From Planctomycetaceae bacterium (GTDB lineage: Bacteria; Planctomycetota; Planctomycetia; Pirellulales; Thermoguttaceae), in contig JAIRLW010000176.1 of NCBI GenBank assembly GCA_031259095.1, forward strand, positions 1-8,346: 8,346 nt of DNA, read 5' to 3'. The notes below the pieces were generated by a model, which was not told the origin of the DNA, did no database searches, and saw only the letters and a program-made list of their open reading frames with translations. The translations under genes were made by a program, and so were the position numbers. Shown here piece after piece: positions 1,496-8,346 of the stretch (positions are counted from its first letter, which is position 1; every line of letters begins with the position of its first letter).

Positions 1496-1711
1496 TTTGA
1501 TTTTCCTTACTCTATTGGTTTACGGGTTTTCTTTACAGTATTTTGCGGCGGCTTCACTGATTTTCTTCAATACTCAGTTAGGACATAGGTTTGTCTTTCG
1601 CCATTCCGTATAATCAAATTGCTGACTCAGCAGCATGTAAATAAACCGTTCCGACTCTAAAAGTCCCAACCCTTCAGTGAGACATTTAATTCCTTTGTTA
1701 AGTAAAACAAG

Positions 1712-1720
1712 ATCGTCTGT
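1712..1720. repeat. Direct repeat flanking the MITE-like element (left copy)
   Basis: ATCGTCTGT is identical to 2006-2014 and is read as a target-site duplication. The last three bases (TGT) may belong to the element end, because the partial copy at 8288 also begins TGTAAT. The true duplication is therefore 6 bases (ATCGTC) or 9. Confidence 0.7.
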
Positions 1721-2005
1721 AATATATCAGTGGAATTTTTGTTTTTGGGGGCGGAATTGCCCCCTTTTGCGGTGAACTTGCCCCCGTTCAGAGCAAACTT
1801 GCCCCCGTTCAGAGTAACCTTGCCCCCGTTAGGGACGATAGGGACTCATGGGGACTCAATAGAACCAATTCGTTGTTTTTCCTATCTTCGGCGTGTTTTG
1901 CGATATTCAGCGTCTTTTGCGTTTAAATTTAACACAGAATACACAAAATGACGCAGAAAATGGGGAACGTTGAGACCGTTACAAAGATTCCGCTGAATAA
2001 TTACT
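1718..2005. mobile_element. MITE-like non-autonomous element, 288 bp, inserted in a small gene
   Basis: The left end is TGTAATATATCAGTGGAATT and onwards (1718-1741). The right end, read on the minus strand from 2005, is AGTAATTATTCAGCGGAATC and onwards (to 1982). The two 24-nt ends align without gaps at 18 of 24 positions. Both are bounded by ATCGTC, and deleting the element restores a reading frame with ribosome binding site and ATG. It has no credible coding capacity. Its interior holds a GGGGGC/GCCCCC hairpin (1747-1764), a 21-bp tandem repeat (1757-1840), GGGACNNNN nonamers (1832-1859) and GCGTNTTTTGCG-like repeats (about 1887-1925). A transposase elsewhere in the genome would have to move it. 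The family is not recognised. If TGT is not part of the left end, the element is 1721-2005 with a 9-bp duplication. Confidence 0.7.
1757..1840. repeat. Four 21-bp imperfect tandem repeats
   Basis: Units start at 1757, 1778, 1799 and 1820, each opening TTGCCCCC. The second and third are nearly identical (TTGCCCCCGTTCAGAG, then CAAAC or TAACC); the first and fourth diverge in their second halves. The fourth runs into GGGAC nonamers. The period is a multiple of three, so a spurious plus-strand frame reads as LPPF repeats. The whole array sits inside the MITE-like element. Confidence 0.85.
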
Positions 2006-2014
2006 ATCGTCTGT
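2006..2014. repeat. Direct repeat flanking the MITE-like element (right copy)
   Basis: ATCGTCTGT is identical to 1712-1720. On the minus strand it reads ACAGACGAT, codons 2 to 4 of the broken gene directly after its ATG, so this copy is the original target sequence. Confidence 0.7.
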
Positions 2015-2024
2015 CATTATTAGA

Positions 2025-2030
2025 CTCCTT
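2025..2030 (-). promoter_or_regulatory. Ribosome binding site of the broken small gene
   Basis: The minus strand reads AAGGAG with a 7-base spacer to ATG at 2017. This near-ideal site now leads into only 12 codons (MTDDSNYSAESL, then stop inside the element). That is strong evidence that a real gene started here before the insertion. Confidence 0.7.
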
Positions 2031-2098: not shown

Positions 2099-4000
2099 TT
2101 AGTTCCATTGAGCGTTTGCGAGATGTTCGTTGTAAGCGGTGATGATTTCGTGTTGCCGGAGCATTCCTAGCAAGCGGTTGGGTTGTTTTGGGTCAACAAC
2201 CGGAAGTTCCGAAATTCGCCATAGCGTACAGATTCGTAACGCTTTGTAAAGATCGTCGTCCGGCGCAACCGCAATTTCCACGTTACGCGAGAGGTCTTTT
2301 GCGGTTAGCGCGCCCCATTTCTTCCGGCTTCGGAAAACCGCCCAAATGTCGCTTGATTGAATCACACCGATTAGATTGTTTTCGTTGTCAACCACTGGAA
2401 ATAGAGAATCCGGTTTTGACGCGATGAGTCTTGCCGTTTGCGGAATCGACGACTCTGCCGGAATAGTCAACACGGAATGTTTTTTATCTTTTTCGAGACA
2501 AGTTTCCCGCACAGTGATCACTTTCAGCAGATCAATTGAATAATTACCGAAATGGGCTTCACTGTCGATTGGAGCCAGAACTTGTTCTTCGTAAAGCGAA
2601 GTGGTGGGCGATTGGATGGCGATATGGACGAGATTAAGGATGAAGAGCGGGATGAGGAGAGTGAAATCGAAACCGATCATTTCACAAACGATTATGGCGG
2701 CGGTGAAGGGTAGTTTTCCGATACCGGCGTAAAAGGTTGCCATTCCGACGAGGACGCAGGTGGTCATATTGGGCGTTCCCGAAATTCCAACCGTTTCAAA
2801 AACTAATCCGCAACAATGTCCGAGTGTTCCGCCGATCAGTCCTCCGATCAACAGCGAGGGGGCGAGCAGTCCACCGCTACCGCCGGAGGAAACGGTTAAA
2901 GCGGTTGCGAGCATTTTTGGGATAATAAGACAGAGGATCAGGTAAAACGGCAACTGATTTTCCAACAACCGATGCATCCATCCGTAACCGCCACCGAGAA
3001 CTTGCGGATAGGTTAAAGCGATACAGCCAAGAAGAAATCCGCCCAACGCCGGTTTGAAAAACTCTGGAATAGGAAGCCGTCGAAAGATTCGGTTGCGGAG
3101 TTCCATGACCATCCGAACAAAAAGAAGACCGCAAAGGGCAATGATCGGAATAAATATCAGAAACACCAAAAGATCGGTTCCGTGTTGAATTCCGACTGTT
3201 TCCGAAATTTCCAACAGACGAGTTTGACCGTGAAAAAATCGGAATATCGAATAGCCTGCCACCGACGCTAAAAGACAAGGGATAATGGCGGTGAATTCCA
3301 ATGCGGTGCTGGCGTACAAGATTTCTACGGCATACAATGCTCCACCGAGCGGGATTTGAAAGATTGCTCCGATTCCTCCGGCGGCTCCGGCAAGCAGCAG
3401 AATCCGGCGATCATGGACATTCAGACGCAACGGCTGCGCCAACATTCCCGCAATTCCCGCGCCAAGAAGAGAGGTCGGTCCCTCCCAACCCGCCGAACCG
3501 CCGGAACCAAGTGTTAGGAAACTTGCCAATGTTTTGACAATGGGAAGACGATTGCGTAGGATACCGTTGCGAAAATGAAAGGAACGAATTACACTGTCGG
3601 TTCCTTCCCCTACTGCTTCCGGCGCAAACGACCAAATAAGAAATCCGCAAAGGAATCCGCCAAACGAAGGAATTAAAAGAATTAAAATCCAATATCGCGG
3701 AAGAACGAACCCGTCAAAATAAACATCTTTTCGCGGGGCGTCCCAAAACGCCTCGCCCGGCAACGCCCCAGACGAAACGGTGTAATGTTCAGGCGTGGGA
3801 AAGACAATCCCCGCCGAAGAAAAAAATCCCGTCACCGAATGTTCCAGAAACTGAGCCCCAGCGTAAATTAAAACCGCCGCAAATCCCGAAATAAATCCAA
3901 TCAAAACACTGTAAACTAAAAGTTTACCTGATGAATCCCAATCAAATCGTTGTCGGAATTTGTTCGGAATGGTTTTGTTACCGTGATATTGACCTTCCAT
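2099..4000 (-). CDS. CLC-family chloride channel/transporter with C-terminal CBS pair
   Basis: This 633-aa membrane protein moves chloride, or another anion, across the inner membrane as a channel or H+ antiporter. Hydrophobic CLC helices span about 27-465. Motifs seen are GSGGSAGWEGP (165-175, with the external gating glutamate E173 kept and the usual arginine of GREGP replaced by W172), GAAGGIGAIFQIPLGGAL (205-222) and GGSGGLLAP (373-381, L379 at the usual GxFxP phenylalanine). The first filter motif, usually GSGIP, reads GEGTD (131-135). After E226 the position of the proton-pathway glutamate of E. coli ClcA appears to be I227. Two CBS domains follow (about 508-556 and 568-625; FPVVDNENNLIGVIQSSDI and LPVVD...LLGMLRQHEI), probably nucleotide-binding regulators. 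The lack of GREGT and GxNxP argues against the fluoride-exporting CLC-F branch. ATG 4000 is the first in-frame ATG after a stop at 4055-4057; no Shine-Dalgarno is seen. Confidence 0.95.
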   Translation of the reverse strand: MEGQYHGNKTIPNKFRQRFDWDSSGKLLVYSVLIGFISGFAAVLIYAGAQFLEHSVTGFFSSAGIVFPTPEHYTVSSGALPGEAFWDAPRKDVYFDGFVLPRYWILILLIPSFGGFLCGFLIWSFAPEAVGEGTDSVIRSFHFRNGILRNRLPIVKTLASFLTLGSGGSAGWEGPTSLLGAGIAGMLAQPLRLNVHDRRILLLAGAAGGIGAIFQIPLGGALYAVEILYASTALEFTAIIPCLLASVAGYSIFRFFHGQTRLLEISETVGIQHGTDLLVFLIFIPIIALCGLLFVRMVMELRNRIFRRLPIPEFFKPALGGFLLGCIALTYPQVLGGGYGWMHRLLENQLPFYLILCLIIPKMLATALTVSSGGSGGLLAPSLLIGGLIGGTLGHCCGLVFETVGISGTPNMTTCVLVGMATFYAGIGKLPFTAAIIVCEMIGFDFTLLIPLFILNLVHIAIQSPTTSLYEEQVLAPIDSEAHFGNYSIDLLKVITVRETCLEKDKKHSVLTIPAESSIPQTARLIASKPDSLFPVVDNENNLIGVIQSSDIWAVFRSRKKWGALTAKDLSRNVEIAVAPDDDLYKALRICTLWRISELPVVDPKQPNRLLGMLRQHEIITAYNEHLANAQWN

Positions 4001-4603: not shown

Positions 4604-4638
4604 AGGTAGGCGACGTTTCGGCGAAATGTCGCCTACCT
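4604..4638. repeat. Hairpin repeat of the AGGTAGGCGAY family (copy 2)
   Basis: The 35-base palindrome AGGTAGGCGACGTTTCG, G, CGAAATGTCGCCTACCT has a 17-bp stem broken only by one G/T pair, with no usable loop, so in RNA it would open to a short loop. Bases 4602-4620 match 6234-6252 at 18 of 19 positions. It lies in the leader between the divergent zinc-ribbon gene and the gene at 4921, and neither strand has a T-tract after it, so it is read as a dispersed palindromic repeat and not a terminator. Confidence 0.75.
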
Positions 4639-4704
4639 CCAGATTATTCGCGTAAATAACCAAAAAAGTATATCCGTTTTACTCCCTTTTGTCGAGACCA
4701 AAAT

Positions 4705-4836
4705 TAGTAGTGGACAGTTAATAGTGGAGAGCAGCCTCATTAGTCCTAAGGGACGATGGGGACTAATGGGACATTAGGATAAAGGAGACAACTCTCCACT
4801 CTTAACTATCAATTATCAACTACTATCAACTACTTA
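4705..4836. repeat. Composite inverted repeat with 7-bp-period arms and a GGGAC nonamer core
   Basis: The outer arms 4713-4731 and 4792-4810 pair at 17 of 19 positions (left arm GACAGTTAATAGTGGAGAG). Inside them CATTAGTCC (4738-4746) pairs with GGACTAATG (4760-4768). The core has three in-register nonamers, GGGACGATG, GGGACTAAT, GGGACATTA (4750-4776). The right arm continues as a 7-bp-period run (TAACTAT, CAATTAT, CAACTAC, then CAACTAC) to about 4833. The block ends just before the promoter of the secreted-protein gene. Confidence 0.65.
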
Positions 4837-6210: not shown

Positions 6211-6241
6211 GGATGTGAAGGTAGTTGTCTGGTTCAGGTAG

Positions 6242-6273
6242 GCGATGTTTCGCCCGAAACATCGCTTGTTTTT
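6242..6273 (+). terminator. Probable intrinsic terminator after the TIGR03009-type gene
   Basis: GCGATGTTTCG (6242-6252), two bases, and CGAAACATCGC (6255-6265) form a perfect 11-bp stem followed by TTGTTTTT, 31 bases after the stop codon. The 5' side is preceded by AGGTAG, so this is also copy 3 of the AGGTAGGCGAY hairpin repeat, apparently used as a terminator here. Confidence 0.65.
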
Positions 6274-6334
6274 GATCGACCGAAATCGATTTTAGTCGAT
6301 TTTGGTCTAGTTTGGTCTAGTTTGGTCTAGTTTG
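6271..6334 (+). repeat. 10-bp-period repeat array (copy 2) with perfect TTTGGTCTAG triplicate
   Basis: In register from 6271 the decamers are TTTGATCGAC, CGAAATCGAT, TTTAGTCGAT, then TTTGGTCTAG three times without change (6301-6330) and TTTG. Bases 6277-6298 form a 22-base near-palindrome centred on ATCGAT, with CGATTTTAGTCG matching the other arrays at 11 of 12 positions. It starts directly at the terminator T-tract. Confidence 0.85.
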
Positions 6335-8287: not shown

Positions 8288-8346
8288 TGTAATCTATCAG
8301 CGGAATTTTTTATTTGAGGTTAAAAAAGTATTCGCCCTGAAAGGGC
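8288..8346. mobile_element. Left end of a second MITE-like element, cut off by the window edge
   Basis: Bases 8288-8310 match the end of the 288-bp element at 1718-1740 in 21 of 23 positions (TGTAATCTATCAGCGG against TGTAATATATCAGTGG, then AATTTTT in both). After that the two diverge. The rest of the element, if complete, lies outside the window to the right. Confidence 0.5.
8334..8346. repeat. Small palindrome at the window edge
   Basis: GCCCT (8334-8338), loop GAA, AGGGC (8342-8346) form a 5-bp stem. TTC just before it suggests the palindrome continues beyond the edge as GAA. It lies within the putative second element end. Confidence 0.5.

What the first reader, a model, noticed from the sequence alone, without database searches (positions are those of the whole stretch)
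1712..2017. A 288-bp MITE-like element caught with its target duplication, splitting a small gene after codon 4
Four signals agree. Ends at 1718-1741 and 1982-2005 form 24-nt inverted repeats (18 of 24). ATCGTCTGT flanks the element on both sides. A perfect AAGGAG plus ATG ACA GAC GAT stands on one side, and an orphan frame starting ACA GAC GAT CTT on the other. Removing the element rejoins them in frame. The element carries no gene and its family is unknown to me.
Basis: seen in the sequence. Interest (0 to 1): 0.75.

Follow-up and report, generated by a model that had tools for sequence, protein, structure and literature searches.

The report
IS66-type miniature transposon splitting small gene
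A 286-base non-coding element, one of a family with hundreds of ends in this bacterial genome (likely an uncultured planctomycete), sits inside a small gene that a relative carries whole and without the element, and it was likely moved there by the transposase of an IS66-type insertion sequence.

Summary
The element is real. It spans 1719-2004 (286 bp, GTAAT...ATTAC). The end pattern occurs in 418 places of the 3.84-Mb genome (reversed pattern 0), in 14 of 21 genomes of the genus (0 to 882 places each) and in one genome of another genus (75). Of 47 distinct paired elements, 15 have an exact 8-bp duplication and 20 at least 7 of 8 (control 0.2% and 2%). Similar ends border IS66-family transposase genes of the single-frame ISBst12 type in relatives, and this genome keeps the 5' end of such an IS at a contig edge. 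So this is an IS66/ISBst12-type MITE: a new family of a known kind. No intact transposase with these ends was found, and movement in trans is inferred. Most unusual are the copy load, the patchy spread and the many unrelated interiors between the same ends.

The parts
1719..2004 (.). The mobile element (MITE), 286 bp, GTAAT...ATTAC, no conserved coding frame
   Evidence: Boundaries from family alignment of ends; sisters C113 and C390; frames not conserved between the three copies
1719..1741 (+). Left terminal inverted repeat GTAATATATCAGTGGAATTTTTG
   Evidence: 18 of 23 matches to the right end, counted from the sequence
1982..2004 (-). Right terminal inverted repeat, GTAATTATTCAGCGGAATCTTTG on the minus strand
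1711..1718 (.). Left copy of the 8-bp target duplication, GATCGTCT
2005..2012 (.). Right copy of the 8-bp target duplication, TATCGTCT (7 of 8)
1757..1830 (.). Tandem 21-bp repeats inside the element (TTGCCCCCGTTCAGAG... type); repeat number differs between sister copies
1863..2004 (.). Right-hand module of 142 bp shared with over 30 of the 59 matches in the genome, mostly next to other left parts
2025..2030 (-). AAGGAG ribosome-binding site of the split small gene
   Evidence: same motif before the intact gene in G014
2006..2017 (-). First four codons of the split small gene
   Evidence: intact 67-aa frame in G014
1523..1720 (-). Remnant of the rest of the small gene, 83% identical to the G014 protein, with one internal TGA
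8289..8346 (+). Left end of a second element with the same kind of end, cut by the contig end

Best explanation
This 286-bp non-coding element has ends of the IS66 family, ISBst12 group, and was likely inserted into the small gene as a non-autonomous MITE by the transposase of such an insertion sequence acting in trans. Shown: matching inverted ends, no frame conserved between copies, flanking 8-bp repeats (7 of 8 here; 8 bp is the family's length), an empty homologous site with an intact gene in a relative, hundreds of further ends in this and several congeneric genomes, IS66-type transposase genes bordered by very similar ends in relatives, and the 5' end of one in this genome. Inferred: the transposase binds both ends and joins the element to a staggered 8-bp cut, mostly in A+T-rich DNA, and host repair makes the duplication. 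In the window this split the small gene after codon 4, and the gene went on decaying.
For: Ends: 418 places against 0 for the reversed pattern. Duplication: 15 exact and 20 at 7 of 8 or better among 47. Empty site in G014. IS66 genes: of 13 other genomes of the genus that hold the ends, 9 have PF03050 matches. In 6 distinct places among the 25 loci the gene's 3' end is followed 121-152 bp on by an end in the right orientation: 4 of the GTAAT type, 2 of a GTAAC or degenerate type. G018:C241 has a 1549-bp element with ends CTAATCTATCAGTGG / GTAAAATATCAGTGG and one main transposase frame. The own genome has the first 203 bp of such an IS at a contig edge, 98% identical to the G018 protein over 43 residues. 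ISDge4, of the single-frame ISBst12 group, has ends GTGACTACTCAGCA / GTAACTGCTCAGCA and an 8-bp repeat (PMC12898284, passages).
Against: No intact transposase between these ends was found: the G018 copy is frame-shifted near its end and its flanks agree in only 4 of 8 bases (read), the G014 left part is interrupted, and the own genome gives no PF03050 match. G020 has 813 ends but no match to the G018 protein or to PF03050. The window element shares nothing with the IS beyond the ends. 27 of 47 paired elements, the C113 sister among them (2 of 8), lack a good duplication. The window's own duplication has one mismatch. Movement was not observed.
Confidence: 0.88

Rival explanations
1. It is a MITE, but it is moved by a transposase of another family with look-alike ends that is missing from these fragmented assemblies.
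For: No intact IS66 copy with these ends was found; G020 has 813 ends and no IS66 match; the genomes are in hundreds of contigs.
Against: Very similar ends border IS66 genes in several relatives and the own genome; the end type and 8-bp repeat are those of a published ISBst12-group IS. None of the 30 DDE_Tnp_1 (PF01609) loci examined is bounded by such a pair.
Confidence: 0.09
2. The element is ancestral at this site and was precisely lost in the G014 lineage, rather than gained in the window's lineage.
For: Only two genomes could be compared at the site, so the direction is not polarised by an outgroup.
Against: The window has two copies of the target and G014 one copy with an intact gene; exact loss of element plus one repeat is much rarer than insertion (general knowledge). 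The sister copies are close to the window copy, which suggests recent spread.
Confidence: 0.025
3. Chance inverted repeats or an assembly artefact.
For: The assembly is fragmented (653 contigs) and rich in other intergenic repeats.
Against: 418 ends against 0 reversed, duplications of one fixed length, the empty site, and the element lies inside a contig with unique flanks.
Confidence: 0.005

Closest known systems
IS66 family, ISBst12 group, e.g. ISDge4 of Deinococcus geothermalis (PMC12898284, passages)
   Same: Ends with GTAAC..TCAG-like outer part, 8-bp direct repeat, single transposase frame in the likely partner
   Different: The window element has no transposase; its ends are longer in common with each other (GTAATATATCAGYGGAATYTTT) and were found here only in the window's genus and one genome of another genus
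MITECca01 of the Cardinium endosymbiont (PMC9769881, passages)
   Same: About 240-bp MITE family with one likely parental IS and 169 copies in one genome
   Different: IS982 parent, with some sequence shared with the parent inside the ends; here IS66-type, several hundred ends per genome in six genomes, and interiors unlike the IS
ERIC, Correia and Chunjie elements (review PMC10969869, passages)
   Same: Short repeated elements whose copy number varies between genomes (ERIC up to 711 in Photorhabdus luminescens)
   Different: Other ends and hosts; the term IS66 does not occur in the main text of that review
BrickBuilt of Porphyromonas gingivalis (PMC4596501, passages)
   Same: A MITE that contains a minisatellite (23-nt units there, 21-bp units here)
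   Different: 19 copies, duplications of varying length, TIRs of another kind

Membership tests
MITE (bacterial) | Short, with no transposase gene | tested here: met
   286 bp; longest frames differ between three near full-length copies
MITE (bacterial) | Terminal inverted repeats | tested here: met
   18 of 23 (sequence); both match the 18-base family pattern without mismatch
MITE (bacterial) | Target-site duplication of fixed length | tested here: met
   8 bp: 15 exact and 20 at 7 of 8 or better among 47; the window copy has 7 of 8
MITE (bacterial) | Many copies at different sites, with empty sites in relatives | tested here: met
   418 ends; one empty site found, for the window copy; other sites were not tested
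MITE (bacterial) | Sequence shared with a parent IS beyond the ends (for the classical origin by internal deletion) | tested here: not met
   Window element has no alignment over 40 bp to the IS pieces; a deletion derivative with both ends exists in G019 (616 bp). Many MITEs share only their ends with an IS (general knowledge), so this counts against the origin, not against being a MITE
MITE (bacterial) | Moved in trans by a partner transposase | not testable with these tools
   Needs an assay
IS66 family, ISBst12 group (the likely partner) | IS66 DDE transposase | tested here: met
   PF03050 at 2.6e-24 and 2.4e-12 for the two parts of the G018 gene; zf-IS66 only 0.0018, under its cut-off
IS66 family, ISBst12 group (the likely partner) | Single transposase frame, no tnpA or tnpB | tested here: met
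   G018 element of 1549 bp holds one main frame plus its shifted end; other copies are partial
IS66 family, ISBst12 group (the likely partner) | GTAAC..TCAG-like ends | tested here: met
   GTAATATATCAGTGG, GTAACATATCAGTGG, GTAAAATATCAGTGG, CTAATCTATCAGTGG beside IS66 genes, against ISDge4 ends
IS66 family, ISBst12 group (the likely partner) | 8-bp direct repeat around the IS itself | tested here: inconclusive
   G018 copy 4 of 8 (read), G019 deleted copy 2 of 8; met for the MITEs

The most novel reading that the evidence does not exclude
In these planctomycetes IS66-type ends have become free packing ends: two of them at short range can move whatever lies between, so the family has burst to hundreds of copies with many unrelated interiors (other intergenic repeats, a minisatellite, even a gene start) and has crossed into another genus.
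Probability: 0.35. Interest if true: 0.6.

Novelty: new member of a known kind. Interest (0 to 1): 0.42.

Why it matters
It gives a high-copy MITE family with a named likely partner and a filled and an empty site in sister species. Within one genus the load runs from 0 to 882 end places per genome, so causes and costs of a MITE burst could be compared between close relatives. It also warns that contigs of such assemblies can break inside these elements and that small genes can be split by them.

Tried and rejected
PF01609 (DDE_Tnp_1) as partner: of the matches in 14 genomes, the 30 loci handed out were examined and none is bounded by a pair of such ends; the matches without a locus were not examined. 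A 9-bp duplication: 1 exact of 47, against 15 at 8 bp. Rfam: no family at gathering score in the window. Origin of the window element by simple internal deletion of the IS: nothing shared beyond the ends. Coding role: frames not conserved. The single-strand DNA fold (z -2.80) includes the paired ends and was not pursued. Literature: six searches listed no paper on an IS66- or ISBst12-derived MITE in planctomycetes. This is weak evidence of absence: lists were capped, asked for 'planctomycet' as a whole word and so could not find the usual forms, and one search drew 1,200 papers of which 5 were shown. Of papers I saw listings (titles and abstract starts) and the passages; none was read whole. 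That the relatives' MAGs come from termite guts is my recollection of the isolate-name style; the paper consulted did not confirm it in the passages seen.

Full report
What is there. The window is the whole contig C572 of a 3.84-Mb genome in 653 contigs, 78% complete. Between a type II secretion F-like gene (210-1409, PF00482) and a chloride-channel gene (2099-4000 minus, PF00654 with CBS) lies a 286-bp element at 1719-2004. The repeat proper is 8 bp: 1711-1718 GATCGTCT and 2005-2012 TATCGTCT, 7 of 8.

More than chance. Searched against its own genome (40 of 545 first-look candidates scored), the element gave 59 matches: itself, two near full-length sisters (C113, 91%; C390, 84%), and over 30 that lie in its right-hand 142 bp only. 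The core TCAGYGGAATTTTT with up to one mismatch occurs in 486 places, reversed pattern 15. GTAATATATCAGYGGAATTTTT with up to two mismatches occurs in 418 places, reversed pattern 0. These are ends, so roughly 200 elements if each has two recognisable ends (inference). A second element starts at 8289 and runs off the contig. The three near full-length copies differ mainly by small changes and by the number of 21-bp units.

Duplication length. From all loci then held, 47 distinct pairs of neighbouring ends, 80-700 bp apart and with 12 bp of flank, were compared. The loci had been drawn by likeness to the element, its ends or transposases, and the window's copy is included. At 8 bp 15 are exact and 20 have at least 7 of 8; left flanks set against other elements' right flanks give 0.2% and 2%. 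At 7 bp 2 are exact, at 9 bp 1. So 27 of 47 show no good duplication, the C113 sister (2 of 8) among them; old, recombined or mispaired ends would explain this (inference). The C390 sister, not counted there because its left end has an extra base, has ATTCGACC on both sides, but in a place where that motif is itself repeated. The 20 duplications are 85% A+T, against 58% in the fetched own-genome sample.

Empty site. In G014, of the same genus, contig C379 matches the left flank (206 aligned bases, 92%) and the channel gene (88%). Between them the target is contiguous: one copy, no element, with two base differences from the window at and beside the target, one of them the last base of the 8. 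There the gene is a complete 67-aa frame behind the same ribosome-binding motif. In the genus-wide search of 21 genomes, whose list was cut, G014 is the only other genome listed with the left flank proper. The protein has no Pfam match but 30 homologues at E 1e-3 or better; 3 of the 30 carry an organism name in the listing (a planctomycete, a Termitinemataceae and a spirochaete MAG). Related frames occur in 16 of 21 genomes of the genus. The window's remnant (1523-1720) is 83% identical with one internal stop, so the gene has decayed further. About 25-30 bp beyond the empty site G014 carries a different element of 212 bp with ends GTAACTATTCAG and ATTAATAT on both sides.

The likely mover. IS66 (PF03050) was tried because GTAA ends and 8-bp repeats recalled that family. 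The own genome gave no PF03050 match. Of 13 other genomes of the genus that hold the ends, 9 have matches, 8 over the cut-off. In 6 distinct places among the 25 loci returned, the gene's 3' end is followed 121-152 bp on by an end in the right orientation, 4 of the GTAAT type and 2 (both G012) of a GTAAC or degenerate type. In G018 a 1549-bp element has one main frame (391 aa, with the last part in a shifted frame) between CTAATCTATCAGTGG and GTAAAATATCAGTGG. In G014 left and right parts with GTAATATATCAGTGG ends lie on separate contigs, the left one interrupted. In G019 a 616-bp internally deleted form keeps both ends. With the G018 protein, 12 of 21 genomes of the genus match at E 1e-3 or better, several only at 26-33% identity. 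The own genome has the first 203 bp of such an IS at the edge of contig C24, 98% identical over 43 residues. The published ISDge4 of the single-frame ISBst12 group has ends GTGACTACTCAGCA / GTAACTGCTCAGCA, an 8-bp repeat and a 449-aa transposase (PMC12898284, passages); two IS66 members of Paracoccus also have 8-bp repeats (PMC3281130, passages). Against this: no intact transposase between these ends was found, the G018 copy's flanks agree in 4 of 8 (read), and G020 has 813 ends without any such match.

Distribution. Of 40 genomes (own included) 14 have the end pattern, all 14 among the 21 of its genus, with 3 to 882 places; 7 of the 21 have none, nor do the 19 of other genera. In a draw of 296 genomes of the order 5 have it: G000, G011, G017, G018 and, from another genus of the same family, G153 with 75 places; the other genome of that genus in the draw, G267, has none. 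In 10 stretches of G153, 1 of 5 paired elements with both flanks has an exact 8-bp duplication, and G153 has one weak IS66 match. Horizontal transfer or a mis-binned part: not resolved. Two relatives' contigs match in length and content public Planctomycetaceae MAG records, Pcl387_bin141 (G018) and Cd354_bin63 (G014); the window's genome, of the same genus, is therefore likely a planctomycete too.

Interiors. Fifty-eight elements of 120 bp or more fall, by single linkage on half of the shorter interior, into 19 clusters: 18, 17, 4, 3, 2 and 14 singletons. Interiors of 18 of 58 also match places of the own-genome sample outside recognised elements, though some of these, such as C507, are probably degenerate or cut elements. 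Among 27 non-adjacent end pairs 2 have an exact 8-bp duplication: one holds a second element nested inside it (L046), the other is a 587-bp unit with an extra internal end and what looks like the start of a gene (L019). This suggests that ends can pair over new DNA, which is the novel reading; chance and rearrangement are not excluded.

Verdict. An ordinary kind of thing, a MITE, in a family not met in the papers searched (limits in Tried and rejected), with a likely IS66/ISBst12 partner, a confirmed empty site, and a large and patchy load.

Noticed in passing
window 8289-8346: A second element of the same end type (GTAATCTATCAGCGGAAT) starts here and is cut by the contig end; ends near contig edges are frequent in these assemblies.
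   Followed up: partly
L120 650-861 (G014:C379): A different 212-bp element with ends GTAACTATTCAG and an 8-bp duplication ATTAATAT sits 25-30 bp from the empty site; similar ends flank an IS66-like match in G008 (L191 1191-2379).
   Followed up: partly
L019 1501-2087 (G000:C91): A 587-bp unit with an exact 8-bp duplication contains an extra internal end and what looks like a ribosome-binding site and gene start: possible capture of a gene fragment.
   Followed up: no
L046 1433-1893 (G000:C62): One element (1493-1778, exact duplication) lies inside another end pair (1433-1893) that has its own exact duplication: MITE in MITE.
   Followed up: no
L176 about 2176-2791 (G019:C77; L151 1171-1786): A 616-bp internally deleted IS66 copy that keeps both ends: a possible step from IS to MITE.
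   Followed up: partly
G153 (L246-L255): 75 places of the end pattern in a genome of another genus, while the other genome of that genus in the draw has none: horizontal transfer or mis-binning.
   Followed up: partly
window 4610-4640, 4735-4830, 6235-6330: Other short intergenic repeats (inverted GGCGAC/GTCGCC motifs, GGGACTAATGGGACA runs, CTCTCCACT/TAGTGG runs, GTTTGGTCTA tandem); motifs of these kinds also appear inside some elements.
   Followed up: no
L120 424-627 (G014:C379): The split gene belongs to a small family of about 67 aa with no Pfam match, with up to 7 related frames in one genome of the genus.
   Followed up: partly
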